From the NCBI GenBank assembly GCA_030762935.1, contig CM060883.1:32172501-32236500 (forward strand): a stretch of 64,000 nucleotides of DNA, read 5' to 3'. The position numbers and the translations under genes were made by a program. The notes under the pieces are model-generated. The model made no database searches. It was not told the origin of the DNA and saw only the letters and a program-made list of their open reading frames with translations. Below, in pieces: positions 1 to 64,000 of this stretch. The DNA is from Hymenopus coronatus. Taxonomy: Eukaryota; Arthropoda; Insecta; Mantodea; Hymenopodidae. Each line of letters starts with the position of its first letter. Positions within the stretch are counted from its first letter, which is position 1.

Positions 1-59
1 AATCATTTCACTTTCTATGGTGATATAATTTCAAAGTATTATCTGCAGTGATGTTAACA

Positions 60-892
60 CTTTCCCTTGAAACCCACCCCCCAAAAAAAAAATCGAAAAG
101 GATCCGTGTATCCGTGCGTACGTGCGTGCGCTGTGTATGTTTCTGTGAACAACCTGACCCAAATACGAAAACTCGCTCAAATACCAAACTTGATATTTAA
201 GTTGAGCATCCTCCAAGGATTCGCCACAAAGGTGTTCAAGAAAATTCCTCTACCCCAAACTACACTCTACGTGGAAGATTCTTCTAACATTTTCATTTTC
301 TCAAAAATGGCTCAAACGATCATGATTAAAAGCCTATATTTTAAAGTTTTTTCTTCTCAAATGAAATGTATAATATCTTGAATTTTCTGGGTATAGCCTC
401 TGAAGACATCTTCATTCTGGGTATTTGTATAAGTGGTAAACCGTAAGAAATAAACAAAAACCTATTACATAAAAAGCGTAGACTTCGTTAAAAGACACAA
501 TGTCATATACATTTGTATTTGTTTACGTTTTTTGTTGTTGTAAAGTTAACCACTTCCGAAAAATTCTCGGAAATATTCCGAGATTCAAAATACGTATCGT
601 TTCTCAAACGGGAAATCCTTATTCGGTGCATCTCTCTTTTCGTATACTCCTGGCCATACAAAGGGAACCGAATATCAATTGTATCGCATAGCGACAACTA
701 TTAAATTATTTAATTATCACCTTAGCTTAGTACATTCCTTTATGTTCCTTCTGCTTACAAGGAAGCATGTAATAAGACCAGTTCTGCTAATGTTTATCTG
801 GATTAGCATGATGTACACAAAAGAATAATCTATTGTAAGTTTAGTTTGTTTGCAGATCATGTAGAGAAGGTTATGTTAATATAATATACCAG
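60..892 (-). mobile_element. HINE-like element, diverged, hairpin end lost
   Basis: Reads on the minus strand from the subterminal TAGAGAAGG block near 861-870 back through the conserved core to an A-run and pyrimidine tract at 75-95. The core shared with other copies is visible: a 'caaatacca...ttgatattta' palindrome near 178-200, a 'aaaatggctcaaacgat' block near 304, and 'aagaaataaacaaaaacc' near 445. It is much more diverged than most copies and its 3' hairpin is not recognisable, so it is probably an old insertion. Confidence 0.65.
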
Positions 893-1511
893 GTTTTTTA
901 AAATTATTTATTTATTTTTACAGTTTACATGAAAACTCAGCATTTTCAACAATTTCAATTAAAGATAAATCTAAAACAAATAAATTATTTAAACTAAGAA
1001 CGGTAATCAGGTTTACTATTTGCTGGCCGATCACAGTAACTTTTAATTAAATAATATTTATATTTTAGGCGAATTACTAACGAGTTTGCATTAATGTGAT
1101 TCTCATATGTTCAACCTTATGAAGCAATGTTGCCTGCTATATCTTCACGCAGGGACATGTAACCGTATGAATATCCATTTCACTGGTATAATATTGCTCT
1201 CTATTTCAATTGTTGTTTCATGAGGTAATTTAATAATGGGAACACGGGCCCACTTACCTAGAATGTGAAGTGATATACAGGATGTTTAAAAGTCAGCAAA
1301 CATTACCTGGAACAAACAGAAAACGAGTATTAAATTTGCTTTCGTTTAATTAACTCCCACTTGAAATATATATATATATAAATTGGAGTGGTTGTCTAAA
1401 TTTATCTGAAAAAGCAAAGCAAATCATGGATTCAATGAAATAACTAATTTCAAAATCTATATCGGGATTTCACCCCTAAGCGCTAAAAAAACAAAGACGA
1501 AACAACAAAAA
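893..1511. other. AT-rich interval, nothing assigned
   Basis: No reading frame, tRNA-like box or HINE core seen. A short (TA)n run lies near 1367-1380. The phrase at 1273-1290 ('tacaggatgtttaaaagt') resembles the outer ends of some Tc1/mariner-type terminal repeats, but no partner end was found. Confidence 0.4.
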
Positions 1512-2317
1512 TTTGACATGCTCCAATCACATGACTTTATATCTCTATAACATATTATTATTAATAAGTTTGTTCTTCTATCTACTTCATGCTAATCGAG
1601 ATAAACATTAGCAGAAACTGTCTTATTACCTAGGAGGGAAATAAGGGAATACACTAGGCTAAACCGACAGTCAATTGTTTTAACATGCTATGGGATAGCA
1701 ATCAGTTTTTTTTTTTTCTTTTTTCTTTTTTGTGACCAGGAGTTAACAAGGAATATCACGAAACGGTCAACTCCACGAAAAAAATGTGTATGGCATAAAT
1801 TGTGTGTTTAAGGAGATCTACGTTTATTGTGCAGTAAGCTTTTGTCTATATCTTATGGTTTATCAGTTACACGAAATTTAGAAAAACTCATCCAGAATAA
1901 AGAGGTCTTGAGAGGCTATTCCCAGAAAATTCAAGACATAGATTACATTTGTCATCTGAACTATAAGAGATTTTAATCAAAACTGCTACGAGCCTTTTTT
2001 GAGAAAACCAAAATTGTCGACATTTTTTCCACTTAAAGAGTAGCTGGCGTGGGGGGATTTTCTTGAAAATCTTCATGTCGCTTCCATGGAAGATGCCGAA
2101 CTTAAATATGAAGTTTACTATTTTACGGACTTTTCGTTTTTGAGCTATGCTGCCCAAAGATAGACAGACAGAAAGACACACGCACACACAAGAGGCACAC
2201 ATATGGACATTTTGCTTCTTTTGGATTCAGGGGGTCCCAAAACATGTAATCTCCAATTTTTGGTTGCAATATAATACCTTCTCTATACACTATGTACATA
2301 GTACGTGTAGCGAAAGT
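1512..2317 (+). mobile_element. HINE-like element, complete
   Basis: Begins TTTGACATGC (diverged TCTGATGTG), with ATGACTTTATATC as the subterminal block, the GCTAAT...ATTAGC stem-loop near 1590-1620, a CA-rich tract at 2165-2200 and the terminal palindrome at 2277-2317 (CTCTATACACTATGTACATAG then GTAGCGAAAGT). About 806 bp. The reading frames inside and antisense to it are repeat translations, with no recognisable protein domain. Confidence 0.8.
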
Positions 2318-2828
2318 AAAAATATACATAGATGGGTTTAAAAGAAACATCAACACACGCAGGAAAGAACGCAGAAGTCACACAAAAAATAAACTAATAA
2401 GTCGGCGGTGTCCGCACATTTTTGGTAAAAAAATCACGAAATTAACTGGGACTTCACTTCATTAAAATCAGAACCGTTAACGAGGAAAACATTATATACA
2501 CAGATTTAATCAGGAATTAATGCATTTTCTATAGAAAAAAAGACAACCGGCAGATTTCTAAGTTCATCAATCTCCGTCAGAGGGCAGCACAGTGGAACAG
2601 AGAAAGGAGAGGGCGCCTACTCAAATGATTAGTCGAGTAAAGAAAATGATGATGCCACGAACTGTAACGAAACCATCTTCAATTTTTTTAAAAAATATGA
2701 GGCAATAAGAATGTTAATTAAGCTTGGCACAAGTTAGAAACCAAAATTGGATGTTTAGTTCAGCATTTTCTAGATATGCAACAAACATATTTTCAATGAA
2801 TCCTTCCACAGCAAACTACCTTTGCAAT
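2318..2828. other. Interval without assignable gene
   Basis: Mixed-composition sequence, more GC-rich at 2565-2625 (purine-rich, 'agagaaaggagagggcgcc'). No domain-bearing frame and no tRNA-like promoter boxes recognised. Confidence 0.4.
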
Positions 2829-3164
2829 AAGCAATATCTCGGAAATAGCTTTACAAAAAAAAAAAAAAAAAAAAAAGTGTATGACAAATTGTATGTTAAC
2901 GAGATCTGCAGTTTTTGTGTAGCAAGGTTTTGTCTATCTCTTACGGTTTTCCAGTTATACGGACTACTTATGTTTTTGAGTTATGCCGTATACAGACTCG
3001 CACACACAGGTTTTTTTTTCTCTAAAAATGTGTTGTTTTTTTAATTCATGAATCATCAAAACACATTTCTGGTGAAATATCCATATTGAATTTTTGGGTG
3101 GAATACACAACCTCTCTATTTACTATGCAAGAACAAACGCCTATAATATTTAGAGGAGAAAATA
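2829..3164 (+). mobile_element. HINE-like element, internally deleted
   Basis: Starts inside the family core ('gcaatatctcgg', then a 23-base A-run near 2855-2876 replacing the usual 'ccacgaaaaaaa'), jumps from the 'ccagttatacgga' block to 'tgtttttgagttatg', and ends with a diverged hairpin side TAGAGGAGAAAATAAAA. Both halves of the family are present and roughly 350 bp in between are missing. Confidence 0.65.
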
Positions 3165-3311
3165 AAAATATATTTATACAATATATAAATCATAATCATT
3201 ACATAAAAGAGCCAATAACACTGCACAAAATAAAATTAAGTGTTGGGCAATTTTTTTTTTAAATACAGTTCCGGAGTCTGGTCGGGACTCCGGCGCTGTA
3301 TTACCCTTTCT
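3165..3311. repeat. Flank duplicate A with a G/C-rich stem-loop
   Basis: The stretch at 3166-3250 ('tatttataca...aatcataatcattacataaaag...gttgggcaat') recurs with changes at 4265-4370. It is followed by a strong stem-loop at 3264-3300: TACAG, a 2x2 internal loop, then CCGGAGTC paired with GACTCCGG across a 7-base loop. A relative of the hairpin is present in the opposite orientation near 23909-23950. Confidence 0.6.
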
Positions 3312-4143
3312 ACTTTCTCTACACGTACTATGTATATAGTATATAGAGAAAGTGTTGTAATACACCCAAAAATTCGATATTGAGATTTCACCGGAAATAC
3401 ATGTTTTGGGTCCCCTGAATAAAAAAAAATACATTTTTGAAAAAAAAAAGTCCATGTGTATCTGTGGATAGAATAGCTCAAAAACGAAAAGACCGTTGAA
3501 TACCAAACTTGGTATTTGAGTTTAGTATCTTCCAAGGATGCGATACGAAGATATTCAAGAAAATCCCCCCCAACTACCCTTTACATAGAACATTTTTCGA
3601 AAGTTTTGATGTACTCAAAAATGGCTCTAACGATTTTGATTAAAATATCTTATATTAAAGATATTTACATTATAAACATAATATAATGTATAAGTTGAAT
3701 TTTCTGGAAATAGCCTCTGAAGACTACTTTATTTTGGATGACTTTTACGGAATTTTGTATAACTGAAAAGCTGTAAGAGATGGACAAAAACTCACACCAC
3801 AAAAAGTGTAGAGCACGTTAAAACACACAATTTATGTTATACACATTTTTTTCGTGGAGTGGATCGTTTTTGATATATTCCTTGTTATTGGTTTCAGCTT
3901 TAAAAATATTTTATTTTTCTCATACGGGAATTTTTCAACTGCTGTCTATACAAAGGAACTTCAGTCACATAGCAACTAGCTTTTGACTATCACTTTAACC
4001 AATGTTACTCCCTTATTTCGCTTTTACTTACAAAGAAGCAAGTAATAACACTATTTCTGCACGAAGTAAATGGAAGAATAAGCTTTTTAACAATAATTTA
4101 TTGCAGAGATGTAGAGAAAGTCATGTGTATGGAATACATTGGA
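3312..4143 (-). mobile_element. HINE-like element, complete
   Basis: Terminal palindrome at 3312-3352 (ACTTTCTCTACACGTACTATG ... AGTATATAGAGAAAGT) and 5' terminus at 4109-4143 (GATGTAGAGAAAGTCATGTG ... ggaatacattgga). About 832 bp. It sits between two copies of the same flanking sequence (3166-3250 and 4265-4370), so it either entered a pre-existing duplication or the flank was duplicated with it. Confidence 0.85.
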
Positions 4144-4742: not shown

Positions 4743-5608
4743 TCAGATGTGCACCATTCACATGACTTTCTCTATATCCCTGTAACAAATTATTCCTAAA
4801 AAGCTTATACTTCTATTAACTTCATGCTAATCAGTAAAACATTAGCAGAAATAGCCATATTACTTGCTTCCTTGTGAGTAGGGGTGAAATAAGGCAGTAC
4901 CATAGGTTAAAGTGATAATCAAAAGCTGGTTACTATGTCACTGAAGTTCCTTTGTTTGTATGGACAGCAGTTGACAAATTCCTGTATGAGAAATGTATAA
5001 GTTTTTCACAGCAGAAACCAAAAATAAGGAATGTCACAAAAACGACGAACTCCACGAAAAAAATGTATATATCATAAATTGTGTGTTTTAACATGCTCTA
5101 CATTTTGTGTATAGTAAGTTTTTGTCCATGTCTTACGGTTTAGTAGTTATTCAAAATTTAGTAAAATTCATCCAGAATAAACTACTCTTCAGAGGCTATT
5201 CCCAGAAAATTCAAGATATACATTTTATTTGTCAGGTAAATATCTTTAATATACGAAATTTTAATCAAAATCGTTAGAGCCATTTTTGAGAAAACCAAAA
5301 TTTTCCAAAAAAGTTCCATGTAAAGGGTAGTTGGGGGTGGGGGGATTTTTCTCAAATCTTTGTGTCGCATCCCTGGATGATACTAAACTTAAATACCAAG
5401 TTTGGTATTTTACCTACTTTTCGTTATCGTGAGTTATCGTGTTCACAGACACACGGACACACACACACGGACCTTTTTTCGAAAATGCTTTTTTTAGATA
5501 AAGGGGACCCTAAAACATATATTTCCGGTGAAATCTTGGTATCGAATTTTTTGGTGGAGTGCAATACATTCTCTATCCACTATGAACATAGTGCCTATAG
5601 AGAAAGTA
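4743..5608 (+). mobile_element. HINE-like element, complete
   Basis: 5' end TCAGATGTGCACCATTCACA, subterminal GACTTTCTCTATATCC, (CA)n at 5447-5475, and terminal hairpin 5568-5608 with a weakened inner palindrome (CTATCCACTATGAACATAGTG). About 866 bp. Close in sequence to the copy at 38786-39648: both share the 'tatatccctg' variant and the 'gcctatagagaaagt' hairpin arm. Confidence 0.85.
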
Positions 5609-5632
5609 ATAGATGATATAGGGCTTACAATG

Positions 5633-6106
5633 AATCACATGTGTTCAATTCATATGACTTATTCTACACCTCTGTAACAAATTATTGATAAAATGTGAAA
5701 TGAGATAAACATTAGCGGAAATGGGGTTATTGCTTTCGTATAAGTAGAAGGGAAATAAGTGAATGCACTAGGCTAAAATGCTAGTCAATCTTTTAAAACC
5801 TGGTTGCTATGTGACTGAAATTCGTATCTTTGCCTAACCAGGAGCTGACAATCCCTGTATGAGAAAACTTTTAAGCATTCTAAAACTGAAACCAATAATA
5901 AGAAAATGGTCAATTCATGTAACTTTACATGACACAAATTGTGTATTTTAACGTGATCTACATGTTTTGTGTAGTAAGTTTTTTTGTCTCTACGGTTTAC
6001 TATTTATGCAAAATTCATCTAGAATACAGAGGTCTTCAGAGACTCCTCACAGAAAATTCAACATATACATTTCAATTTTCATGTAAAGAATATTCATAAT
6101 TTACAT
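5633..6106 (+). mobile_element. HINE-like element, 3' truncated
   Basis: Starts 'cacatgtgttcaattcatatgac' and follows the family to 'cagaaaattcaacatataca...tcatgtaaagaatattcataatttac', then stops. The (CA)n tract and hairpin are absent. Confidence 0.7.
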
Positions 6107-7172: not shown

Positions 7173-8004
7173 TCTGAAGTGTTCAGTTCACATGACTTTT
7201 TCTACATCTCTGTAACAGAGTACTGTTAATAAGCTTATTCTTCTATTTAATGCTAAAACATTAGCGGAAATGGACTTATTACTTAGTTCCTTTATAAATA
7301 GAGAGAAATAACAGAATACACTAGACTAAACCGACAGTCAAATGTTTTAAAATTAGGTTGCTAGGGGATTGAGATCCGTGGCCAAGCGTTGACAAGTTCC
7401 CGTATGAGAAAAGTATTTTAAAACTGAAATTAATAACAAGGAATAACTCGAAAACGGCCAACTTCACGAAAAAATGTGTATGACATAAATTGTGTGTTTT
7501 ATCGTGATCTACGTGTTTTGTGCAGTAAGTTTTTGCCTATCTCTTACGGTTTACCAGTTATGCAGAATTCAATAAAAATCATCCAGAATAAAAAGATCTT
7601 CTAAGGCAACTCCAGAAATTTCAAGATATACGATTTATTTGTCATGTAAATATCTTTAATATACGATATTTTAATCAAACTAATTAGAGCCAATTTTGAG
7701 AAAATCAAAGTATTAAAAAATTTCTCCATGTAAAGGGTAGTTTGGGGTGGGGTATTTTCCTCAAAAGCTTAGTGTCGCATCCATGGATGATACTAAACTG
7801 AAATACCAAGTTTTTGGTATTTTGGCAAATTTTCATTTTTGAGTTATCGTGTTCACAGAAACGCATACACGTTTTTTCTTAAAATGTTTGTTTTCGAAAC
7901 AGGGGACCCTAAAACGTGTATTTCCATTAAAATATTGGTATTAATTTTTTGTGTGGAGTGCAATACCTTCTATACTCATGTATCATCTACTATGTAGAGT
8001 AAGT
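7173..8004 (+). mobile_element. HINE-like element, complete, variant hairpin
   Basis: 5' end TCTGAAGTGTTCAGTTCACA; subterminal GACTTTTTCTACATC; 3' end 'tctatactcatgtatcatctactatgtagagtaagt'. The terminal hairpin here belongs to a shorter class (see also 48000), with outer arms kept and the inner palindrome shortened. About 832 bp. Confidence 0.8.
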
Positions 8005-8204
8005 AAAAGAAAAAAAAATAAAAGCGTGGAATACGCGAGACAAGAATATTCGAATTTTGTGAAGAATGCAATTCGAGAAACAGTGAACAATTTTTTTTGA
8101 GAATGAGCCAACAGAGATAAAGGAAGTTAATGCTAGTAAATATTTTTTCTAATATCAGAAGAATCATATTTTATAAAATTGGCCAAAAGAACCCACAATG
8201 TGAG

Positions 8205-8673: not shown

Positions 8674-9530
8674 TCTCACGTGTTCAATTCACATGGCTTT
8701 CTCTATATCTCTGCAATAAATTATTGTTAGAAAACTACTTCTATTTACTTCACGCTAATCGAAAAAAAAAACAATAGCATAAAGAGTCTTATTACTTGCT
8801 TGCTTACTTGCAAGTAGAAGAGAATTAAGGGAGAACCATAGGTTAAATTGATAGTCAAATCTAGTAAAACCGGATTGCTATGTGATTGAAGTACCTTTGT
8901 TTGACAAATTCCCGTATGAGAAAAGTATAAGTATTTAAAGCTGAAACTAATAACAAGAAATATCTAAAAAAAAAAAAAAAGTCAACTCCAAGAAAAAAAT
9001 GTATATAGCTTAAATTGTGTATTTCAACCACCTCTACATTTTTTGTGTGGTTGAGTTTTTGTCTATCTCTTTCCAGTTATGCAACATTCCGCAAAGTTCA
9101 TGGCGAATAAACATGTCTTCAGTGGCTATTCCCAGAAAATTGAAGATATAAACTTTAGTTGTCATGTAAATGCTTTAAGCATAAGAGATTTTAATCAAAA
9201 TCATTAGAGCCATTTTTGAGAAAATCAAACCTTTCGAATTTTTTTCCATGTAAAGGATAGTTGGAGTTGGGGGGGATTTTCTTAAAATAGTTGTGTCGCA
9301 GCCTTGGATGATACTGAAATTAAATACCAAACTTACCAAAGCTTTTCGTTTTTGAGCTATGCTGCCCACGGACACACACACACATACAAACGGGCATTTT
9401 TCCAAAAATTATTTTTTTTAATTCAGGGGGACCCAAAACATGTATTTCCGGTGAAATCTCGGTATCAAATTTTTGAATACAATACAATACTTTCTCTATA
9501 CACTATGTACATAGTACGTGTAGAGAAAGA
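8674..9530 (+). mobile_element. HINE-like element, complete
   Basis: 5' end TCTCACGTGTTCAATTCACA; ACA-rich microsatellite at 9371-9395; hairpin 9490-9529 (CTTTCTCTATACACTATGTA ... GTACGTGTAGAGAAAG). About 857 bp, lying between X copies 2 and 3. Confidence 0.85.
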
Positions 9531-9733
9531 ATAAGGCACAGGTAGAAGTAGAGCTAAAAGGAGTATAAAACCAAGGTAAAATAACTGTCCAACCCTGAAA
9601 CCAGAGCTGGGGAAAAACTACTGCATTAAAAGAGCTAAAACGGGGGAAAACAATTACATCAAAATTGTCGAATAGTGACATGTAAAAACAATTAAAAGCA
9701 AAGAATAAAAGCCAGCTATTTAAAAGTAAAAAA
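9531..9733. repeat. Module X, copy 3, 5' part
   Basis: Starts inside the module at 'ggcacaggtagaag' and reads to CCAGCTATTTAAAAGTAAAA at 9712-9732. It is interrupted by the next HINE-like copy and resumes at 10518. Confidence 0.7.
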
Positions 9734-10512
9734 TCTGATTGTTCCATTCACATGACTTTCTCTATATACCTGCAACAAATTATTGTTAAATAGCTTATGC
9801 TTCTATTTATTTCATGCTCATCGAGAAACAATTAGCAGAAATAGTCTTATTACTTGCTTCCTTGTAAGTAGAAGCGAAAAAAGGAAGTAGGTTAAAGCGA
9901 TAGTCAAAAGCTGGTTGCTATGTGACTGAAGTTCCTTTGTTTGTATGGACACGATTTGACAAATTCCTGTATGAGAAAAGTATAAGCTTTTCAAAGCTGA
10001 AACAAAAAACAAGGAATATCTAAAAAACGATCAACTCCACGAAAAAAAATGTATATAACATAAATTGTGTGTTTTAATGTGCTCTACAATTTTTGTGTGC
10101 TAAGTTTTTGTCTATCTCTTACAGTTTATCAGTTATACACAATTTCGTAAAATTCATCCAGAATAAAGTAGTCTTCAGATGCTATTTCCAGACAATTCAA
10201 GATATACATTTTATTTGTCAGGTAAATATCTTTAATTTACGATATTTTAATCAAAGTTGTTAAGAGCCATTTTTAAGAAAATCAAAATTTTCGAAGAAAG
10301 TTCCATATAAAGGGTAGTTGGGGGTGATGGTATTTTCGTGTCGCATCCTTGGAAGATGCCAAATTTAAATACCAAGTGTGGTATTCAATGGTTTTTTCGT
10401 TTTTGAGCTATGCTGTCCAGATACACACAGACACACATACACACGGACCTTTTTTTTTTTTTTTTTTTTTTGATTCAGGGGGACCCAAAAGAAATATTTG
10501 CGGTGAAATCTC
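9734..10512 (+). mobile_element. HINE-like element lacking its 3' hairpin, flanked by a 21-bp direct repeat
   Basis: 5' end TCTGATTGTTCCATTCACAT. The copy runs through the CA tract near 10425 and a 22-base T-run, then stops at 'ttgcggtgaaatctc'. The same 21 bases, beginning CCAGCTATTTAAAAG, flank it at 9712-9732 and 10518-10538. HINEs are not expected to create target-site duplications, so this may come from repair or from a different insertion route. Confidence 0.75.
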
Positions 10513-10700
10513 AAAAACCAGCTATTTAAAAGTAAAAACTCCGCCCCGTTATCACAGCACACAGCTACCACTGACTAAAACCTCAAGGTAAAAGAAATTT
10601 GTGCTAAAAATTTAAAAACCCTGTCTACTGCTCTCGGCAAGAGCATCATCCGAGGAGGAATAAATGCTGAAAATGATAAAGGTACATTGGAATTGCCCTG
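10513..10700. repeat. Module X, copy 3, 3' continuation
   Basis: Resumes with the 21-base duplicated phrase and continues into 'ctccgccccgttatcacagcacacagc', giving the longest view of the 3' side of module X in this window. The right boundary is a guess because no second copy reaches this far. Confidence 0.5.
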
Positions 10701-11262: not shown

Positions 11263-12165
11263 ACTAATGTGTTCCCTTCACATAACTTTCTTTAGCTGTT
11301 CCAAATACAAACTATTTTTACAAAAGCTTATTCTTTTATCCACATCATAACCTGCCATAGCTGTTCCAAATACAAATTATTCTTACAAAAGACTATTCTT
11401 TGTTGTACCAAATACAAACTATTGTTACAAAAGATTATTCATTTAATTGCATCATGCTGAACAAGATAAACATTGGTATAACTTGCTTCCTTATAAGTAG
11501 AAGAGAAATAAGGGAATACATTAGCCTAAGCCGATAGTCAAATCCTTTAAAAGCTTGTCGCTATGTGAAACAATAATTTGAGGTTCGGTTCACTTTGTAA
11601 GGCCCCGTATGAGAAAAGTATAAGTACTTTAAACTGAAACATCAAAAATGTCTACAAAAATGCGTATATAACATAAACTAAGTGTTTTAACGACATCTAT
11701 ATTTTTTGTGCGGTCAGCTTTTGTTCTATATTTTAGGGTTTACCAGATATACAAAATTCAATAAAAATCATCCGGAATAAAGATGTCTTTAGAGGCTATT
11801 CCCTGAAAATTGGAGATATACATATCATTTTTATGTAAATAGCATAAATATAAGACATTTTAATCAAAATCGTTTGAGCCATTTTTGAGAAAATAAAAAC
11901 TTTCCATGTAAAGGGTATTTGGGAGTGGTGGGATTTTCTTGAAAATCTTCGTATCGCATCCTTGGAAGATACTGAACTTAATGACTTTTCGTTTCTGAGC
12001 TATGCTGTCCACACACACATGAATCTTTTTCCAAAAATGTTTTTTTATGGTTTCAGGGGGACCCAAAACATCTATTTCCAGTGAAGTCTAGATATCAAAT
12101 TTTTGGGTGCAGTGCAATACCTTGTCCATCCAGTATATTCATTGTACTTACGGGCTAGAGATGGT
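11263..12165 (+). mobile_element. HINE-like element with internal triplication
   Basis: 5' end 'ctactaatgtgttcccttcacat'. The block 'ttccaaatacaaactattnttacaaaagnttattc' occurs three times between 11298 and 11440, enlarging the 5' region. The 3' hairpin is the second class (12121-12165, ending 'cgggctagagatgg'). About 903 bp. Confidence 0.75.
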
Positions 12166-12199
12166 AAAAAGAAGTCTTAGAAGAGATGATTTTTGTGTG

Positions 12200-12239: not shown

Positions 12240-12296
12240 TTTTAAACGATTTTCCTTTTTCTCGTGTGGTGTTAAAGAAATTGATAAACAATTTTT

Positions 12297-12421
12297 ACTT
12301 TCTCTAGCCCCATATGTACAATGTACATAGGGATAGAGAAGATATTGTAATGCACCCAAAATTCGATACCGAGATTTCACCGGAAATATATGTTTTGGGG
12401 TCCCCTGAGTCCGAAAAAATC
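12297..12421 (-). mobile_element. HINE-like 3' end fragment, class II hairpin
   Basis: ACTTTCTCTAGCCCCATATG then TACAATGTACATAGGGATAG: a hairpin whose loop side differs from the common class but still pairs. It continues into 'cacccaaaattcgataccgag' and is cut off at an A-run where the next copy starts. Confidence 0.75.
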
Positions 12422-12427
12422 ATTTTT

Positions 12428-49459: not shown

Positions 49460-49464
49460 AAAAA

Positions 49465-50310: not shown

Positions 50311-50653
50311 AAAAATGTAACAAGTGAATACTATAACATTTTTTCCATACTTTATAATAGTTATATTAACATTAAGTTAGGAAACAAATTGTAACAAAGA
50401 TGATAAAATATGTACAATAACAATACGAGTTACAACATTAAAAGAAAGTAATTAAAATAATAATAAACCACAATTTATTTACGTTGTGTTTAAATCATAC
50501 AAATGATTTAAAAATATGGTTAGGGAATGTTTTATGATGTTCTGTTGGATCGCTTGTTTAACACTTGTATTCATTTTATACTTCGCCTTCCATTTCACAA
50601 ATATATTTGCGATTGTTCCTCCATATCCAACAAATAGACCAACTACTGTTATT
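50311..50653. other. AT-rich interval
   Basis: No feature recognised. Confidence 0.35.
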
Positions 50654-51207: not shown

Positions 51208-51699
51208 TACTCTTGCGTCTAGACCGTATTTACACGTAGATTAGAGGTTGGGTGGACGTGCAGACCATGGAACTAGTCCTCCTCTATCTATCTATTTGTC
51301 ATGCAGTGCGTCACGAATATGAGACTAAAATATGCTAGAGCACCATGCATAATCCACATGTTTCTTCTTATTTGCAAAAGCACATTTTCTAATAACTGTT
51401 GACAGCACTTGCAAGGCGTGCTGGGGGAATGAATTACATATCTGATAATTGACAAATGTTAACAAGTAGCCATGGCAACACAAGGCCAACTCCGCAGGTA
51501 AAATAGGTCAAAGCCTGCTATGAATAAGTGCATAAATAAATGAAGTTATTAGGTTGGACCCGGAAAGCCGTTGAAAAAAATTGATAAAGCGAAAATGAAA
51601 CTCTTAGAGTATATATTTATATGAGCCTATTTTCTTGATCTGATGCCAGGAACCTATCCCCAAACGTTGTAAAAGTATTTTTGATTCATCTTGTATAGT
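51208..51699 (-). mobile_element. Mariner/Tc1-type remnant related to 33127-33948
   Basis: Shares over 400 bp in the same order with 33500-33945, ending in the same terminal repeat 'cccaaacgttgtaaaagtatttttgattcatcttgtata'. On the minus strand 'DRGGLVPWSARPPNL' corresponds to the 'RGGPVPWPPRSPDL' transposase block, and 'NMWIMHGALAYFS' to the second-acid 'HDGAPAHFS' motif (D missing). In-frame stops. The left terminal repeat is absent. Confidence 0.75.
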
Positions 51700-52224: not shown

Positions 52225-52611
52225 TCTGAAGTATTCCATTCACATGAATTTGTCTACATCCCTGTGACAATTTATTGCTAAAAAGCATATTCTGCTATCG
52301 ACTTTATGATAATCGAGACACACATACATTAGCAGATTTTGTCTTAATTAGTTGCTTCCCTATAAGTAGAAGGTAAATAAGGGAATACACTAGGCTAAAG
52401 TGATAGTCATGTCTTTTAAAAGCTGGTTACCATGTGGTCTAAATCCTTTTCTAAGCAGGGCCAGCAGTTTACAACTTTCCGTATGAGAAACATTTAAGTA
52501 TTTTAAATCTAGAAAAAAAAAAAAAAAAAAAAGAAGGAATATCTCAGGAACAGTCAATTCCACGAAAAAACGTATGACATAAAATGTGTGTTTTAACGGG
52601 ATCTATATCTT
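52225..52611 (+). mobile_element. HINE-like 5' half
   Basis: 5' end TCTGAAGTATTCCATTCACA to 'ttttaacgggatctatatct', abutting the hairpin end of the next copy (head-on junction). Confidence 0.75.
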
Positions 52612-52612
52612 T

Positions 52613-53450
52613 TACTTTCTCTATACGCACTATGTACATAGTGTATAGAAAGGCTAATTGCACTCCACCCAAAAATTCGATACCGAGATCTCACTGGAAA
52701 TATATGTTTTAGGGTCCCCTTTATCTAAAAAAAGCATTTTCAGAAAAAGGTCCGTGTGTGTCCGTGTGTCCCTGTGTCTGTGAACACGATAACTCGAAAA
52801 CGAAATGTAGGTAAAATACCAAACTTGGTATTTAAGTTAAGTATCTTCCAGGGATGCGACACGAAGATTTTGAGAAAAATCCCCCCACCCCCAACTACCG
52901 TTTACATGGACCTTTTTTCGAAAATTTTGACTTTCTCAAAAATGGCTCTAACGATTTTGATTAAAATTTCGTATATTAAAGATATTTACCTGATAAATAA
53001 AATGTATATCTTGAATTTTCTGGGAATAGCCTTTGAACAGTAGTTTATTGTGGATGAATTTTACTGAATTTTGAATAACTGCTAAACCGTAAGAGATGGA
53101 CAAAAACTTACTCCACGAAAAATGTAGAGCACAACTTATGTTATGTACTCTTTTCTTTGAGTTGATCGTTTTTTGGTTTCAGCTTTAAAAAGCTTATAAT
53201 TTTCTCATACATGAATTTGTCAGCTCAAGTCCATACAAAGAAAGGAACTTTAGTCACATAGCAACCAGCTTTTGATTATCATTTAACCTATGGTACTCCC
53301 TTATTTCGCTCCTACTTACAAGGAAGCAAATAATAAGACTATTTCTGCTGATTTTTTCTTGATTACCATGAATTACATAGAAGCTCTAGCTTTTTAACAA
53401 TAAATTGTTGCAGAGATGTAGAGAAAGTCATGTGAATTGAACACACCAGA
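52613..53450 (-). mobile_element. HINE-like element, complete
   Basis: Hairpin 52613-52655 (ACTTTCTCTATACGCACTAT ... AGTGTATAGAAAGGCT) and 5' end 53414-53450 ('gatgtagagaaagtcatgtgaattgaacacaccaga'). About 838 bp. Confidence 0.85.
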
Positions 53451-56158: not shown

Positions 56159-56491
56159 CCCAAAAGTACAATAGGCTGTATCAAAGAAGTTGCCAATTTC
56201 CGATGGTGTAGTAAGGGCCTATTGAAAGAGCTCACATCCCGCTGGCTTTAGAGCTGTTTACTACGACCCGAATATATTCCTACATGCTATGTTTTGAAAT
56301 TGTAACCCTTAATTGCATGGTGTTCCACTTAAGCAAAAAATATGAATAATCAAAGGTTTTAGTATTTTTAATGGACCTTTTTTGTAATTTCGTATTACAC
56401 GAAAATTCAGCAGTAAAATTAGACTAATTCTAGCTGTTTTATATTGTAAAATGATTAATATTTTTACAATAAAACTGTAGTGTTTTTTTTT
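56159..56491. other. Unassigned interval
   Basis: Nothing recognised. Confidence 0.35.
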
Positions 56492-56607
56492 ACTTTCTCT
56501 ACACGTACTATATACAAAATGTATAGAGAAGCTATTATATTGCACCCAAAAATTCGAAACCGAAATTTCACCGGAAATACATGTTTTGGGACCCCTAAAT
56601 CCCCCCA
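56492..56607 (-). mobile_element. HINE-like 3' end fragment
   Basis: Hairpin ACTTTCTCTACACGTACTAT ... 'aaaatgtatagagaagct' then the block up to 'ttgggacccctaaatcccccc', immediately followed by a plus-oriented 5' terminus. Confidence 0.75.
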
Positions 56608-56611: not shown

Positions 56612-57220
56612 ACTGATGTGTTCCAACCACATGATTTTCTCTACACCTCTGCAACAAGTTATTGTTAAAAAGGTTATGCTTCTATTTACTTCATGTTAAT
56701 CGAGAAAAAATTAGCAGAAATACTCTTATTACTTGCTTCCATGCAAGTAGAAGCGAAATAAGAGAGTACCATAGGTTAAAGTGATAGTCAAAAGCTGGTT
56801 GCTATGTGGCTGAGGTTCCTTTGTTTGTATGAACAGGAGTTGACAAATTCCCGCATGAGAAAGGTTATTTAAAGCCTGAAACTAACAAGGAATATCTCAA
56901 AAAACGGCCAGACTCACGAAAAAGTGTATATGACATAAATTGTGCGTTTTAACGAGCTCTTCATTTTTATGTGGTAAGTTTTTGTCTATCTCTTACAGTT
57001 TACCGGTACGCAAAATTCCGCATAATTTATCCAGAATGAAGTAGTCTTCAGAGCCTATTCTCAGAAAGTTGAAGATGTACATTTTATTTGTCGTGTAATA
57101 TCTTAAATATAAGAGCTTTTAATCAAAATTGTTAGTCATTTTTGGAAAGATCAAAATGTTTGCAATTTTTTCTATATAAAGGGTAGTTAGAGGTGGGGGG
57201 GATTTTCTTGAAAATCTTCA
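56612..57220 (+). mobile_element. HINE-like 5' two-thirds
   Basis: CTGATGTGTTCCAACCACAT to 'tgggggggattttcttgaaaatcttca', where it is joined head-on to an inverted copy. Confidence 0.8.
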
Positions 57221-57221
57221 T

Positions 57222-57670
57222 TACATGTTTATTCTGGAAGATTTTTGTGGAAGTTTACATAACAGATGAACCGTAAGAGATAGACAAAAACTTACTACAC
57301 ATAAGATGTAGAGCTCGCTAAAACACACAATTAATGTTATATATATTTTTCTTGTGGAGTAGACCGATTTTAAGATATTCCTTGTTATTTGTTTCAGCTT
57401 TAAATTACTTATAATTTTCTTATATGGGGATTTATCAACTTCTATCCATACAAAGATACTTTAATCACATAGCAACCAGCTTTTAAAAGATTTGATTATC
57501 GATTTAGCCTAGTATATTCTCTTTGTTTCCGTTCTACTTACGAGGAAGCAGGTAATAAGATCTTACTGCCATTTTTTTCTTGATTAGCAATAAGTAAATA
57601 CAAGAATAAGTTTTTTAAAATTAGTTTCTTGTAGAGATGTAGAGAAAGTCATGTGAATGAACATATCAGA
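57222..57670 (-). mobile_element. HINE-like 5' half (downstream member of a tandem on the minus strand)
   Basis: From 'tgtttattctggaagatttttgtgg' to the 5' terminus at 57670 ('acatatcaga'). With 57676-58508 it forms another head-to-tail junction (linker AAACA). Confidence 0.8.
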
Positions 57671-57675
57671 TGTTT

Positions 57676-58508
57676 ACTTTCTCTTCATGTACTATGTATA
57701 TAGTGTATAGAGAAGGTATTGCAATGCACCCAAAATTCGATACCGAGATATCACTGAAAATACATACCTTGAATCGAAAATTTTTAGAAAAATGTCCGTA
57801 TGTGTGTGTATGTTTCTGTGGGCAGCATAGCTAAAAAAAAACCAAAAGGTCTTTAAATACCAAACTTGGTATAGAAGTTTCGTATCTTCAAGGAATGCGA
57901 CACGAAGATTTTCAAGAAAATCCTCCCACCACCAAATACCCTTTACTTGGAACCTTCTTTCGAAAATTTTGATTTTCTCAAAAATGGCTCTAACGATTTT
58001 GATTAAAATATCGCATATTAAAGATATTTACATGACAGATAAAATGTATTTGAATTTTATGGGAATAGCCTCTAAAGCCTACTTTATTCTTAATGAATTT
58101 TACGGAAGTTTGTATAATTGCTAAACCTTAAGAGATGGACAAAAACGTACCACACAGAAATGTAGGGCACGTTAAAAGACACAATTTATGCTCATACATT
58201 TCTTTCGTGGAGTTGATCGTTTTTAAGGTATTCCTTGTTATTGGTTTCAGTTTTGAAAAACTTATACATTTTTCAAAGGGAATTTGTCAACTCCTCTCCA
58301 TACAAACAAAAGAACTTTAGTCACATAGCAACCAGTTTTTGACTATCACTTTAACCTATGGTACTCCCTTATTTCGCTTCTACTTACAAGGAAGCAAGTA
58401 ATAAGGCTATTTGTGCTAATTTTTTTCTTGATTAGCATGAAGTAAATAGAAACATAAGCTTTTTAACAATATTTTGTTACAGAGATGTAGAGAAAGTCAT
58501 GTGAGTCA
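57676..58508 (-). mobile_element. HINE-like element, near complete (upstream member of a tandem)
   Basis: Hairpin 57676-57717 (ACTTTCTCTTCATGTACTAT ... AGTGTATAGAGAAGGT). GT microsatellite 57795-57820. 5' end to 'gagatgtagagaaagtcatgtgag'; the last ~15 bases are replaced. About 833 bp. Confidence 0.85.
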
Positions 58509-59002: not shown

Positions 59003-59421
59003 CCATATATATGACTTTCTATATATCTCTGTAACAATTTATTGTTAATTGCTTATTCTTCTATCCATTTCATGCTAATCGGTCGCAGAAACGGTCTTAT
59101 TACTTAGTTCCTTGTAAGTAGAACGGAAATAAGGGAGTACACTAGGCTATACCGACAGTCAAATGTTTCAAAATGTGGTTGCAATGGGACTGAAATCCGT
59201 TTCTCTACGTGGCCAGGAGTTGACAAGTTCCTGTATGAAAATTTTTTTAAAACTAAAACCAATAGCAAGGTATATCTCGAAAACGATCGACCCCAGGAAG
59301 AAAGTATATGTCGTAAATTGTGTGTTTTATGAAGCTCTATATTTTCTGTTAGGTAAGTTTTTGTCTATTCTTACGGTTTGCCAGTTATACATAATTCCGT
59401 AAAATTCATCCAGAATAAAGT
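59003..59421 (+). mobile_element. HINE-like 5' half, fused to an inverted core
   Basis: 'atccatatatatgactttctatatatctctgtaac' to 'aaaattcatccagaataaagtagg', where it meets a minus-oriented piece. Confidence 0.7.
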
Positions 59422-59614
59422 AGGAATTTTGCTTTTCTTAAAAATGGCGCTAACAATTTTGATTAAAATATCGTATATTAAAGATATTTACTTGACAAAA
59501 TGTATATCTTGAATTTTCTGGGAATAGCTTCTGAATACTCCTTTATTCTGGATGAATTTTACGGAATTATGCATAACTGGCAAACCGTAAGAGATAGACA
59601 AAAACTTACTTAAC
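59422..59614 (-). mobile_element. HINE-like core fragment, inverted
   Basis: 'gcttttcttaaaaatggcgctaacaattttg' to 'ggcaaaccgtaagagatagacaaaaac'. Both halves share the 'cattcatccagaataaagta' region in opposite orientation, so they can fold back. Confidence 0.7.
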
Positions 59615-59616
59615 AG

Positions 59617-60016
59617 AATAATAATCATAATAATAATAGTAATAATAACAATAATAATCATTTCGTAATCTTCTTATCCTCCCTGTAATTTTAGGGCTTG
59701 CACCCACTCCCCTAGGACTTACAAGCCAATGCCTAGCGGTCAGAAGCCTGTCGGGGAGTCTACGGCACGAAACCACAGAATGAGAACCAGTTACGAGGGG
59801 TCGGTCCGTAGCCAGGCATGAACATGAGAGAGTGGATGATGTAAAATGTAAGCGAATTTGATTGTTTGGAAAGTTGATGATGGAGAAATTGGTGCAATGA
59901 GTGGCCGGGGAAACCTCCCCGGACGCCGCTTCGTCCACCACGAAGCCCACATACGGGCACGTGGGATCGAACTCGGGCGACCTAGATGGTAGGTGAAAGG
60001 TCTAACTAGTAAACCA
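59617..60016 (-). mobile_element. SINE family D, full-length-looking copy with (AAT)n tail
   Basis: Head on the minus strand at 60016 ('ggtttactagttagacctttc'), B box complement 'gggatcgaactcgg' near 59966, body 'cgtccaccacgaagcccac' on plus, 'ggcatgaacatgagagagtgg', 'cggtcagaagcctgtcggggagtc', 'cccctaggacttacaag', then an (AAT)n/(AAC) tail on the plus strand at 59617-59660. The longest copy of the family in the window and the reference for the others. Confidence 0.75.
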
Positions 60017-60050: not shown

Positions 60051-60576
60051 TACACGTGAATAAGTTAATGTAAACAGTCTTATAGTAAAAAGAATTAAAG
60101 GAAAGAGATGACAAAGATCATTCGTGACCGCGGTAGACAAAATTTAGTTGTGAATTAATAGTGTAGGAGGAGGGGGGGGGCACATTGTTAGCGACCCTGG
60201 CCACTAATGAAGTACCGATGACTAATGCTAAAGGAACCCTTGTTTACCTGCTACGGGCGTGCCAAAGAGGTGTGATCATGGTAGCTGAGGTATGGCAATT
60301 CTATCACAAATATGTTTCTTCTTCTCTCCCGACGGCTTAGTAACCGTCAGGGAATGCGGGTGGGGACGGAGAGGAAGCCTCGAGGACATGACCAACCCAG
60401 GCATGTGGTCGTATTTTAAACGGCAAATAATTTTCGCTTTCAAGCAGTGTTAACTCGTACAACCTCTATCTTACAAAAGAGGTATTTCACTAAAAATCTA
60501 ATGTACCTATTCCATTCACACAAATTTCCTCTTCTTATTCTTACAACTTAATTGCTTCATTGCTTTAACTATTTTT
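60051..60576. other. Unassigned interval, part GC-richer
   Basis: 60130-60420 has a G-run ('aggagggggggggcac') and an inverted GACGG...CCGTC pair near 60340-60352. No domain or repeat assignment. Confidence 0.35.
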
Positions 60577-61433
60577 ACTTTCTCTATACGTACTATATAC
60601 ATAGTGTATAGAGAAGGTATTGAACTCCACCAAAAAATTCGATACCGAGATTTAACCGAAAATATATGTTTTGGGGTCCCCTGCATCCAAAAAAAGCATT
60701 TTCAGAAAAAGGTCATGTGCGTGTGTGTGCGTGTCCGAAAACTCAAAAACGAAAAGTCGGTAAACTACCAAAATTGGTATTTAAGTTTAGTATCTTCCAG
60801 GGATGCGACACGAAGATTTTGAGAAAAATCCCTCCACCCCAAACTACCCTTCACATGGAACTTTTTTCGAAAATTTTGATTTTCTAAAAAAATGGCTCTA
60901 ACGATTTTGATTAAAATATCGTATATTAAAGATAATTTACCTGAAAAATAAAATGTATACTTTGAATTTTCTGGGAATAGCCTCTGAAAACTACTTTATT
61001 CTGAGTGAATTTTACGGAATTTTGCATAACTTATAAACCGTAAGAGGTAGATTAAAAAATTAACATATACAAATGTAGAGCACGTTGAAACACACAATTT
61101 ATGTTATATACATTTTTTTCGTGGAGTTGATTGTTTTTTAGATATTCCTTGTTTGTTTGTTTCAGCCTTAAGAAACTTATACTCTTCTCTACAGGAGTTT
61201 CTCAACACCTGCCCGTACAAATAAAGGAACTTCAGTGACATAGTAACCAACTTTAGACCATCACTTTAACCTATGGTACTCCCTTATTTCTGTTCTACTT
61301 ACAAGGAAGCAAGTAATAAGACTATTTCTGCTAATTTTTACTCAATTAGCATGAAGTGAATAGACGCACAAGCTTTCTAACAATAATTTGTTGCAGAGAA
61401 GTAGAGAAAGTCATGGGAATGGAACACATCAGA
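60577..61433 (-). mobile_element. HINE-like element, complete
   Basis: Hairpin 60577-60618 (ACTTTCTCTATACGTACTAT ... AGTGTATAGAGAAGGT), short GT tract 60718-60735, 5' end 61397-61433 ('gaagtagagaaagtcatggg...cacatcaga'). About 857 bp. Confidence 0.9.
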
Positions 61434-61454: not shown

Positions 61455-61645
61455 TAGGACAGCATTTGGATAAACAGAATCAGACTGAAAAATTCAATGG
61501 CATAGCCGGGACTTGAACGCGGTCTCTAGCCGGTTGGGCCGGTTAGACCACTCGTCTCTCACCCTTCAATCCCAAGCGACCGCATGTGAGATCCGTGGTT
61601 CAAATCCCATTTAAGAATGTTTCAGTCTGACTCTACCTATTCAAT
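61455..61645. mobile_element. Composite of SINE families A and C
   Basis: 61465-61535 is family A on the minus strand ('cagactgaaaaattcaatggcatagccgggacttgaac'). 61536-61590 is family C on the plus strand ('ggttagaccactcgtctctcac', 'cccaagcgaccgcatgtgag'). 61590-61640 returns to family A on plus ('atccgtggttcaaatccc', 'tcagtctgactctacctattc'). The outer 'cagactg' and 'cagtctg' pieces are inverted. No intact promoter pair remains. Confidence 0.65.
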
Positions 61646-61659
61646 AGCAAAAATGTCTT

Positions 61660-62163
61660 GTTACACATTTCCTTGTAGGTACAACGAAAATGAGGGAATG
61701 CACTGCACTAAAGTGATAACCACATATTTTACGTGTTGGTTGCTGTATGTTTACGTTGAAATTCAGTTCTCTTTGCATTACCAGGTGAAAAAAATTAAAA
61801 CTTTCAATTTACGAAAAGTATATTATTGGATAATTTAAACCAACAACAAGAAATATCTCGGAAATGGTTAACTCCGCAAACAAACCATTTGGCATAATTG
61901 ATGTATTTTGATGAGATTTTTTTTTTTTTTTGTGAAGTAAGTTTTTACCTATCTCTTACGGTTTACCGTTGTGCAAACTCACCGAGAATGATTAAGGCGG
62001 TATTTCCAGAAAATTCAAGATATAATTTCATTTGTCATAAAAATATCTTAGACATATTACTTTAAACAAAATAGTTATATCCATTTCTTTTACAAAATCA
62101 AAATGTTGATAATTATTCCATGCTCAAAATCTCTCTGTCGCATTCTTGGAAGATGCTGATGTA
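61660..62163 (+). mobile_element. HINE-like element, both ends lost, diverged
   Basis: 'ttccttgtaggtacaacgaaaatgagggaatgcact', 'ctcttacggtttacc', 'cagaaaattcaagatata', 'tgtcgcattcttggaagatgctga' in family order with many changes. Confidence 0.65.
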
Positions 62164-62545: not shown

Positions 62546-62570
62546 TCCGTTCTCAATTCAATTGCAAAAA

Positions 62571-63266
62571 TCTGATGTATTCCATTCACATAACTTTCTC
62601 TGTAACAAATTATTGTTAATAAGCTTATTCTTCTATCCACAACATACTAATTGAGATAAGCACTAGCAGAAACGGTCTTATTGCTTGGTTCCTTTATAAG
62701 TAGAAGGGAAATAAGGGAGGGAATACACTAAGCTAAACCGGCAGTCACATGTTTTAAAATGTGCTTGCTATGGGATGGAAATCCGCTTCTTTGAGTGGTA
62801 AGATTCTATATGAGAAGTGTATTTTAAAACTGAAACCAATAACAAGGAATATCTTGAAAACGATCAACTCCAGGAAAAAATGTATAGGATATAAATTACG
62901 TGTTTTAACGAGATACACATTTTTATAGTAGGTTTATATCTTATATCTTACGGTTTAACAGTTACGTAAAATTAAAAAAAAAAAAGAAACATCCAGAATA
63001 AAAAGATCTATAGAGGCTATTCTCAGAAAATTCAAGATATGCATTTTATTTCTTATGTAAATAACCTAAATATAAAATATTTTAATCAAAATAGCTAGAA
63101 CCATTTTGAGAAAATCAAAATGTTCAACATCTTTTCCATGTAAAGGGTAGTTGGGAGTGGCGATATTTTCTATGAAATATTCGTGTCGCATCCTTGGGAG
63201 ATACTAAACTTAAATATCAGGTTTGGTAATTAACGGACTTTTCGTTTTTAAGTTATGCTGCCCACA

Positions 63267-63331
<65 letters not shown>

Positions 63332-63464
63332 ACAGACCTTTTCTTTTCTTTTCTTTTCTAAAAATGCTCATTTTTGGATTCAGAGGGTCACAAAACATGT
63401 ATTTCAGGTGAAATCTCGGCATCGAGATCACTATACACTATGTAAATAGTACGTGTAGAGAAAG
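62571..63464 (+). mobile_element. HINE-like element, complete, long (CA)n
   Basis: 5' end TCTGATGTATTCCATTCACA; ~30-unit CA run at 63266-63326; hairpin 63430-63464 missing part of its proximal arm ('atcactatacactatgtaaatagtacgtgtagagaaagt'). About 894 bp. Confidence 0.85.
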
Positions 63465-63497
63465 TAAAAATATATATCACTCGAAAATTTATTTAAT

Positions 63498-64000
63498 ATC
63501 AGACTATTTTATTTTCTCTAAAATGTAGATTTTGTATTATGCAGAATAGGTAGAAAAGGTATTGCGTTACTTCCAAAATTCGATTTCGAGATTCCACGGA
63601 AATGTTTTGAAGTCCCCTGGATAAAAAGTAGTTTTAGAAAAAGGTCCATGCGTTTGTTAAATGCCAAAGTTGATGTTTTAAGTTCAGCAAGACCAAGCTT
63701 TTCAGGAACTACCCCATCATAAACTACCCTTTATATGGAAACTTTTTCGAAAATGTTGTTTTTTCCAAAAATGTCTATGCATTTTGATTGAAATAGCATA
63801 TCCATAAGATACTTTCATAACAAATAAAACGTATAACTTGAATTTGCTGGGACTAGCCTCTGAAGCGCTCTTCATTCTGATAACTTTTGCATAACTATTA
63901 AACCATAATAGATCGACAAAAATTTACTGCACAAAAAATGCAGCGCTCGTTAAAGTAACAATTTATGGAGTTAAAATTTTCTTGTTATTGGTTTTTAAAT
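63498..64000 (-). mobile_element. HINE-like element, diverged, continues past the window
   Basis: 'tattttctctaaaatgtagatttt...gcagaataggtagaaaaggtattgcg' is a decayed hairpin. 'ccaaaattcgatttcgagattcc' and 'actaccctttatatggaaactttttcg' follow. The copy is cut by the window end within its 5' third. Confidence 0.75.

What the first reader, a model, noticed from the sequence alone, without database searches (positions are those of the whole stretch)
1..64000. One HINE-like family occupies just over half of the window
Roughly 60 complete or broken segments (about 34 kb by hand-placed boundaries) share ends, core order and microsatellite position. They show a subterminal ACTTTCTCTA that is the inverted repeat of the 3' terminal TAGAGAAAGT, a (CA)n tract, and a terminal palindrome. 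This is the architecture known for helentron-associated non-autonomous elements (Drosophila DINE-1), but the family itself, at this local density, may be undescribed.
Basis: partly seen in the sequence, partly recalled or inferred. Interest (0 to 1): 0.8.

Follow-up and report, generated by a model that had tools for sequence, protein, structure and literature searches.

The report
Rolling-circle repeat filling a mantis genome
Half of this stretch of what is most likely the orchid mantis genome consists of old, decayed copies of one short jumping-DNA family that cannot move by itself and was probably copied by a longer rolling-circle element whose broken remains are found elsewhere in the same genome.

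Summary
In detail: a profile of 15 copies finds 72 segments covering 33,490 of 64,000 bp (52.3%); a reversed control gives none. The HINE (non-autonomous Helentron) reading holds too, but the orientation is reversed and each end was called about 5 nt short. On the opposite strand the order is the published one: T-run, ACTTTCTCTA, its inverted repeat, microsatellite, core, TAGAGAAAGT, short palindrome, T-run. No consistent target-site duplications; insertion into T-runs; 5 of 5 end-to-end junctions head-to-tail. In 20 preset 10-kb stretches of the same 3.13-Gb assembly the family covers 30.2% (bootstrap 22-38%), so the window is rich, not unique. Host, by assembly statistics: most likely Hymenopus coronatus. 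Helentron-type Rep/helicase relics exist there; of six examined, two end in the HINE 3' terminus (87% over 38 bp), one has a degenerate one, one lacks it, two were not reached. At C11 a HINE-like block with its own degenerate terminator leads into the coding body, and C12 shares that junction, so HINEs may be early-termination products. Abundance is not wholly new: an ancient Helitron burst is in print for this species, and house fly Helitrons reach 28%.

The parts
49466..50315 (-). Exemplar complete HINE copy (HINE 5' end at 50315)
   Evidence: nhmmer model 1-872, E 1.8e-275
50311..50315 (-). Exemplar: 5' T-run
   Evidence: sequence; T at 79-94% in the five positions before ACTTTC, 39 of 50 copies
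50301..50310 (-). Exemplar: 5' subTIR ACTTTCTCTA
50269..50310 (-). Exemplar: 5' hairpin, subTIR plus inverted repeat about 22 bp further in
   Evidence: 64 of 73 5' ends folded (of 92 available) pair subTIR with IR by 6 or more bp, against 509 of 4,380 shuffles; two stem variants z -4.2 and -6.0
50145..50173 (-). Exemplar: GT/GTCC microsatellite
   Evidence: sequence
49487..49496 (-). Exemplar: 3' subTIR (TAGAGAAAGT on the HINE strand)
49469..49485 (-). Exemplar: 3' palindrome ATGTG-N7-CACAT
   Evidence: sequence; 89.8% of 215 cells paired over 43 distinct rows but no compensatory changes
49460..49465 (-). Head-to-tail junction: one shared ATTTTT between copies 48602-49464 and 49466-50315
48602..49464 (-). 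Complete copy
   Evidence: E 3.4e-273
60572..61432 (+). Complete copy
   Evidence: E 2.6e-271
12423..13327 (+). Complete copy nested in an older copy
   Evidence: E 4.5e-293; empty site
13337..14104 (+). Outer copy, model 1-740
12292..12427 (+). Outer copy, model 741-872
4746..5610 (-). Complete copy
3307..4140 (+). Complete copy
1515..2322 (-). Complete copy, divergent
7174..8008 (-). Complete copy, divergent
8676..9534 (-). Complete copy
9740..10513 (-). Partial copy 7-798
11414..12170 (-). Partial copy 42-872
14686..15507 (+). Complete copy, divergent
18683..19469 (+). Partial copy 66-872
20014..20812 (-). Copy with internal deletion (2-121 and 205-872)
20820..21667 (-). Broken copy (8-263, 764-834, 431-596, 695-870)
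22079..22840 (+). Copy with internal deletion (508-872 and 5-441)
23197..23598 (-). Partial 1-351
23951..24425 (-). Partial 293-841
25264..25609 (-). Partial 7-359
25860..26750 (-). Complete copy
27177..28055 (+). Complete copy
30312..31145 (+). Complete copy, divergent
31737..32517 (+). Complete copy
33977..34587 (+). Copy with internal deletion (590-857 and 14-395)
34898..35777 (+). Near-complete copy 6-870, alternative 5' stem variant
38688..38782 (-). Solo HINE 3' end, 1-98
38787..39653 (-). Complete copy
39655..39895 (-). Partial 1-243, head-to-tail with the copy ending at 39653
39911..40080 (-). Partial 699-872
40076..40409 (-). Partial 95-441
40399..41143 (+). Partial 1-757
41143..41381 (-). 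Partial 498-780
46442..47119 (+). Partial 5-685
47272..48038 (-). Complete copy, divergent
50650..51208 (+). Partial 296-871
52226..52612 (-). Partial 1-364
52610..53449 (+). Complete copy
56487..56602 (+). Partial 756-872
56613..57220 (-). Partial 1-620
57223..57668 (+). Partial 2-443, head-to-tail with the next copy
57671..58506 (+). Near-complete copy 13-872
59003..59424 (-). Partial 11-443
59425..59618 (+). Partial 362-559
61643..62159 (-). Partial 98-644
62572..63470 (-). Copy in two pieces (1-729 and 700-872)
63509..63987 (+). Partial 304-869
80..886 (+). Partial 7-758
5639..6089 (-). Partial 4-499
2969..3129 (-). Partial 678-846; further fragments at 2733-2850 (+), 2826-2960, 4146-4265, 6634-6807, 8233-8294, 11265-11348, 16517-16618, 24663-24708, 37979-38079, 58524-58578 (all -) and 15513-15649, 30133-30241, 54167-54392, 54771-54942 (all +)

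Best explanation
The repeats are decayed copies of a HINE-type, non-autonomous Helentron family of about 0.87 kb in a mantis, most likely Hymenopus coronatus. SHOWN here: boundaries at T-runs; subTIR plus inverted repeat forming a 5' hairpin; microsatellite; 3' subTIR and palindrome; insertion into T-runs without consistent target-site duplication; head-to-tail junctions, some sharing one T-run; and Helentron-type Rep/helicase relics in the same genome, two of which end in the same 3' terminus. INFERRED: the Rep/helicase protein of such a Helentron nicked at the 5' T-run and subTIR, a single strand was peeled off by rolling-circle replication until the 3' subTIR/palindrome/T-run signal, and the product was joined into a T-run elsewhere; missed or repeated rounds made the tandem copies. 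The burst looks old (30 copies of the main lineage lie on average 0.090 K2P from their consensus). The coding regions of the three relics read (L056, L057, L059) are split over several frames; the C11 relic was not read in full.
For: Segments and control. Boundary logos of 39 5' ends and 31 3' ends out of 50 copies. No excess of TSDs: 10 of 21 pairs with 3 or more matching bases, against a re-paired mean of 9.79. Empty sites for nested copies inside T-runs (my reading of 5 of the 16 queries that had a paralogue, of 50 tested). End-to-end junctions head-to-tail 5 of 5. Hairpin in 64 of 73 5' ends folded. Helentron-type relics with S in the diagnostic Rep position, PIF1 helicase and a weak endonuclease match. 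HINE-like 3' ends at two relics (34 of 39 and 33 of 38 columns; 0 and 3 of 20,000 null windows as good), and the C5/C11 alignment stops at the T-run. The two named helicase relatives among 10 hits from insects are PIF1-like or ATP-dependent DNA helicases.
Against: The 3' palindrome shows no compensatory change (0 of 5 pairs); its pairing (89.8%) and covariation score (0.137) are even slightly below the shuffles (90.4%, 0.160), and it folds no better than shuffles (z -0.5 and -1.2). After stripping T-runs, 2 of 21 copies keep a 3+ nt match where 0.49 is expected (33 of 500 re-pairings as high). The endonuclease match is below Pfam's cut-off (20.3 against 27.4 bits) and found no solved structure. 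HINE and the two Helentrons are 73% and 71% alike over the last 60 bp, below the published 80% for one subfamily. The Rep motif is degraded in all three relics. No intact autonomous copy was seen.
Confidence: 0.94

Rival explanations
1. Refinement, not exclusive of the best explanation: the HINEs arise as short, early-termination products. The Helentron carries a second, internal copy of the 3' terminator about 0.87 kb from its 5' end, and stopping there yields a HINE instead of the roughly 9-kb element.
For: On C11 a HINE-like block (model 2-872 in two pieces, E 2.8e-144 and 6.9e-43) starts at a T-run, ends in a degenerate 3' terminator without a T-run, and runs on into the Helentron body. 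C12 has the same junction, the alignment crossing it at 77% identity.
Against: Seen in 2 loci only, and at C12 only the end of the block (model 6-228) lies in the stretch fetched; the C5 and C21:264 Mb copies are rearranged on that side. C11 and C12 may descend from one copy in which a HINE had landed beside a Helentron. The internal terminators are degenerate (34 of 48 and 37 of 50 columns).
Confidence: 0.35
2. Alternative partner, also within the HINE reading: the HINEs were moved by a different Helentron lineage, now lost, and the relics found merely share a common terminal signal.
For: Last-60-bp identity of 71-73% is below the published subfamily rule (PMC4067079 section 9); Helentron relics are few (86 helicase matches) against a very large number of HINEs.
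Against: The 38 terminal bases are 87% alike, and HINE-like sequence leads into two relics on the 5' side.
Confidence: 0.4
3. The elements are MITEs or other cut-and-paste elements of a DDE transposase.
For: Inverted ACTTTCTCTA/TAGAGAAAGT; Tc1 elements are reported as the largest component in H. coronatus (PMC12908712).
Against: The inverted repeats are not both at the extreme ends, and there is no excess of TSDs.
Confidence: 0.02
4. The elements are canonical Helitrons (5' TC, 3' CTRR, A/T target; end rules recalled).
For: Canonical Helitron relics exist in this genome: GLPHAH Rep motif in L054 and L055.
Against: HINE ends are T-run/ACTTTCTCTA and CATCAG/T-run, not TC...CTRR.
Confidence: 0.02

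Closest known systems
HINE-Mo, HINE-Cq and DINE-1 (PMC4067079; passages, outline and sections 9 and 15 read)
   Same: Order of subTIR, inverted repeat, microsatellite, 3' subTIR and 3' palindrome; T-rich target; no TSD; Helentron partner in the same genome
   Different: No central tandem repeats in the consensus; very high genome share.
Cg_HINE of Crassostrea gigas (PMC7492417; passages read)
   Same: Same module order, GTCC-like microsatellite, T-rich target, no TSD
   Different: Cg_HINEs carry satellite-like arrays between the modules; these carry a unique core
House fly Helitrons, 28% of the genome (PMC6327564; passages read)
   Same: Comparable share of the genome
   Different: That figure is for all Helitron elements together, in a fly
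Helitrons of Hymenopus coronatus and Deroplatys truncata (PMC12908712; passages and section 6 read)
   Same: Most likely the same genome; an ancient Helitron burst is reported
   Different: Section 6 gives no family, ends or HINE/Helentron type, and calls Tc1 the largest component. Supplementary tables could not be read.

Membership tests
HINE (non-autonomous Helentron) | 11 or more bp identical subTIRs at the two ends | tested here: met
   12 bp (ACTTTCTCTACA) in the consensus of 50 copies; only 10 bp in the consensus of 15 window copies and in many single copies
HINE (non-autonomous Helentron) | Short inverted repeat 3-22 bp inside the 5' subTIR (DINE-1) | tested here: met
   Spacer about 22 bp; pairing in 64 of 73 5' ends folded
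HINE (non-autonomous Helentron) | Microsatellite | tested here: met
   GTGTGTCC-type tract in the consensus
HINE (non-autonomous Helentron) | 3' subTIR followed by a 5-10 bp palindrome close to the 3' end | tested here: met
   ATGTG-N7-CACAT in the consensus
HINE (non-autonomous Helentron) | 3' palindrome maintained as a structure | tested here: inconclusive
   89.8% of cells paired, but no change on both sides and slightly below the shuffles; z -0.5 and -1.2
HINE (non-autonomous Helentron) | T-rich target, variable T-runs, no TSD | tested here: met
HINE (non-autonomous Helentron) | Autonomous Helentron sharing the ends in the same genome | tested here: inconclusive
   3' end shared at C5 and C11, degenerate at C21:264 Mb; C16 and C12 not reached, C21:262 Mb lacks it. 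A HINE-like 5' end seen only at C11. All are relics; none shown to be intact
Same Helentron subfamily as the relics | 80% or more identity over the last 60 bp | tested here: not met
   46 of 63 and 44 of 62 columns
Helentron (relics L056, L057, L059) | S, not L, in the Rep motif RG(S/L)(P/L)HxH | tested here: met
   RGSPDEH in L057, RGSAHEH in L056, RCSPHKH in L059: S in all three, other motif positions degraded
Helentron (relics L056, L057, L059) | Endonuclease domain after the helicase | tested here: inconclusive
   At C5: PF14529 at 20.3 bits, E 5.3e-4, cut-off 27.4; no match in solved structures
Canonical Helitron | 5' TC, 3' CTRR, insertion between A and T (recalled) | tested here: not met
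   boundary logo
MITE / DDE transposon | TIRs at the extreme ends and TSDs (recalled) | tested here: not met

The most novel reading that the evidence does not exclude
The Helentron of this mantis lineage carries an internal copy of its own 3' terminator, so each rolling-circle round can stop early and release a 0.87-kb HINE. That built-in short product would explain how a family with only broken, rare autonomous relics came to fill about 30% of a 3.1-Gb genome.
Probability: 0.25. Interest if true: 0.7.

Novelty: new member of a known kind. Interest (0 to 1): 0.48.

Why it matters
A single HINE family covering about 30% of 200 kb sampled from a 3.1-Gb genome would be among the heaviest rolling-circle loads known to me, matching all house fly Helitrons together (28%). 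It offers a case in which the non-autonomous element, relics of Helentrons, nested insertions and tandem junctions can be read in one genome. It also suggests that repeat annotation of this species, which names Tc1 as the largest component, may have filed part of this family elsewhere: with TEs at 68% in print and this family near 30%, that is worth checking (inference).

Tried and rejected
Viral contigs: the 5'-end pattern gave 25 loci, none carrying the element by nhmmer; the 3'-end pattern gave 0; a scan with the Helentron helicase matched 19 stretches, none confirmed. Phage records: no match. No Helentron protein match in the window or in L027-L053 (tblastn). A first covariation count on the 5' end used a structure string out of register and is discarded; one search replaces it. 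Four window segments end at model 441-443; in the 20 random stretches no segment ends there but three begin at 426-440; left unexplained. Three HINE copies with similar 3' flanks (6817-7171, 8298-8672, 9556-9711) could be read-through transduction or plain tandem duplication; not resolved. Host: a transposase search named a termite at best; Periplaneta was considered and set aside because its scaffold N50 and chromosome number differ. Loci L054 and L055 were fetched first and rejected as partners, as was L058.

Full report
OBSERVATION. A profile from 15 near-complete copies finds 72 segments covering 33,490 of 64,000 bp (52.3%); the reversed sequence gives none. A single copy used as a blastn query already covers 29.2-29.6 kb (three queries). 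ACTTTCTCTA and its complement occur 45 times, against 0.15 expected.

ORIENTATION AND ENDS. In 39 full copies the five positions before ACTTTC are T in 79-94%, while the 15 positions further out stay at 48% or less; in 31 copies the 3' side shows CATCAGA and T at 77-96% over five positions before falling to about 50%. The copies that failed the anchoring motif (11 and 19 of 50) were left out of those logos. This is the order given for HINEs and DINE-1 in PMC4067079 (passages). At C5 and C11 the shared 3' end lies downstream of the Helentron helicase on the same strand, which agrees with this orientation.

INSERTION. Of 21 copies with both ends anchored (29 of 50 dropped), 10 have 3 or more matching flank bases, the same as after re-pairing (mean 9.79); after removing T-runs 2 do, against 0.49 expected, with 33 of 500 re-pairings as high. 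That small excess is not explained, but consistent duplications are absent. Of 50 junctions tested, 16 had a junction-spanning paralogue elsewhere; by my reading five of these (window 12423-13327, L034 5802-6678, L034 1590-2470, L048 8834-9648, L048 7645-8507) are insertions into another HINE at a T-run, the other 11 being unclear or chance alignments. In the window and the 20 stretches, complete ends abut complete ends five times (four in the window, one in L050), each time head-to-tail.

HAIRPINS. Of 92 5' ends, 73 passed a start-motif filter and were folded: 64 pair subTIR with inverted repeat by 6 or more bp, against 509 of 4,380 shuffles; mean z -2.49, 44 of 73 below -2. Two stem variants of different sequence both fold well (z -4.2 and -6.0). 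The 3' palindrome was counted on 44 rows chosen by me (42 HINE ends out of 100 listed, plus two Helentron ends; 43 distinct): 89.8% of cells pair, but none of the 5 pairs changes on both sides, and pairing and covariation lie slightly below the shuffles; it has no fold advantage. Copies decaying after insertion would show this too, so the palindrome is shown as sequence, not as selected structure.

GENOME SHARE. The window lies in an assembly of 3,126,739,099 bases in 384 contigs; one copy had 10,544 first-look candidates there, of which the best 40 were scored. Twenty 10-kb stretches at round positions, fixed before they were seen, on 13 contigs carry 60,396 bp of the family (30.2%; range 0.6-69%; bootstrap 22-38%). 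With E <= 1e-10 and 100 bp or more it is 29.0%, and the reversed control gives 0. All 13 contigs had shown up, three of the stretches are on the window's own contig, and none is on C21, the largest; so 0.94 Gb, about 1.1 million full-length equivalents and about 0.36 million complete copies are extrapolations. The first 60 kb of the window average 51%; six random tiles reach that in 0.3% of draws, so the window is rich but not a separate phenomenon.

AGE AND UNITY. 50 full copies: median pairwise identity 0.73; 30 form one cluster at 0.81 (flanks of 40 nt included). Mean K2P to own consensus is 0.090 for the cluster and 0.151 for all 50, flanks excluded.

HOST. Hymenopus coronatus is reported with a 3,127,590,514-bp assembly, scaffold N50 159,059,693, 20+X chromosomes with X the largest (PMC12908712, passages). 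Here: 3,126,739,099 bp, C16 of 159,052,695 and C21 of 545,668,161, the largest contig met. I infer this species; the mitochondrial check could not be done.

HELENTRON RELICS. PF14214 gives 112 matches in the genome, 0 of 14 control genomes ringing. Two of the strongest, L054 and L055, carry the canonical Helitron motif GLPHAH. Of four weaker ones fetched, L056, L057 and L059 have S in the diagnostic position of a degraded Rep motif and L058 showed no such motif. Helicase PF05970 31.7 bits; endonuclease-like ORF PF14529 20.3 bits, below its cut-off, and no solved-structure match. The helicase finds 86 matches in the genome, by my eye roughly 50 places. Six Helentron loci were examined for the 3' end: C5 and C11 have it (34 of 39 and 33 of 38 columns; 0 and 3 of 20,000 null windows as good); C21:264 Mb has a degenerate one (11 of 20,000) at about the expected spacing once an inserted HINE is discounted (about 345 against 373 bp from a shared landmark, counted by hand); C16 and C12 were not reached; C21:262 Mb loses homology before it. 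The test windows were picked after the matches had been seen. The C5 and C11 copies align up to the T-run and no further, so it is the element's end. Over the last 60 bp they are only 73% and 71% like the HINE.

THE 5' SIDE. On C11 a HINE-like block starts at a T-run, head-to-tail behind another HINE (model 1-458 within the stretch fetched), ends with a degenerate terminator without T-run, and continues into the Helentron body. C12 shares that junction at 77% identity, though only the end of its block (model 6-228) lies in the stretch fetched. C5 and C21:264 Mb are rearranged there. From the block's start to the 3' end the C11 element would be about 8.9 kb (from the coordinates). This is the basis of the novel case and is no more than suggestive.

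KNOWN AND NEW. The kind is known. The abundance has precedents: house fly Helitrons 28% (PMC6327564, passages), grasshopper repeatomes with 7-20% helitrons (PMC7486953, passages), and an ancient Helitron burst in H. coronatus itself (PMC12908712 section 6). A search for papers holding both 'helentron' and 'manti...' in the held library gave none, and 'Hymenopus coronatus' with 'Helitron' gave only that paper; Repbase and Dfam could not be searched, so whether the family is already catalogued there is open.

Noticed in passing
window 42283-43458: Tandem array of a 56-bp unit, about 21 copies, 91% matches.
   Followed up: no
window 24426-24650, 55018-55211, 34706-34893; tRNA calls at 23714-23786 and 55020-55092: Dispersed repeats of about 200 bp; one member coincides with a predicted tRNA-Val, suggesting tRNA-derived SINEs.
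   Followed up: partly
window 6817-7171, 8298-8672, 9556-9711: Three HINE copies in a row have similar sequence abutting their 3' ends: local duplication or read-through.
   Followed up: partly
G000, e.g. C21:280.06-280.22 Mb and C21:461-468 Mb: 100 COX1 matches over many contigs, many full-length with TGA as the main stop: apparently many nuclear mitochondrial copies.
   Followed up: no
G000:C21: Many Helentron helicase matches lie on the largest contig, with a cluster of similar pieces at 498-512 Mb.
   Followed up: no
window segments ending at 22840/22402, 40409, 57223, 59424: Four window segments stop at model position 441-443; no explanation.
   Followed up: partly
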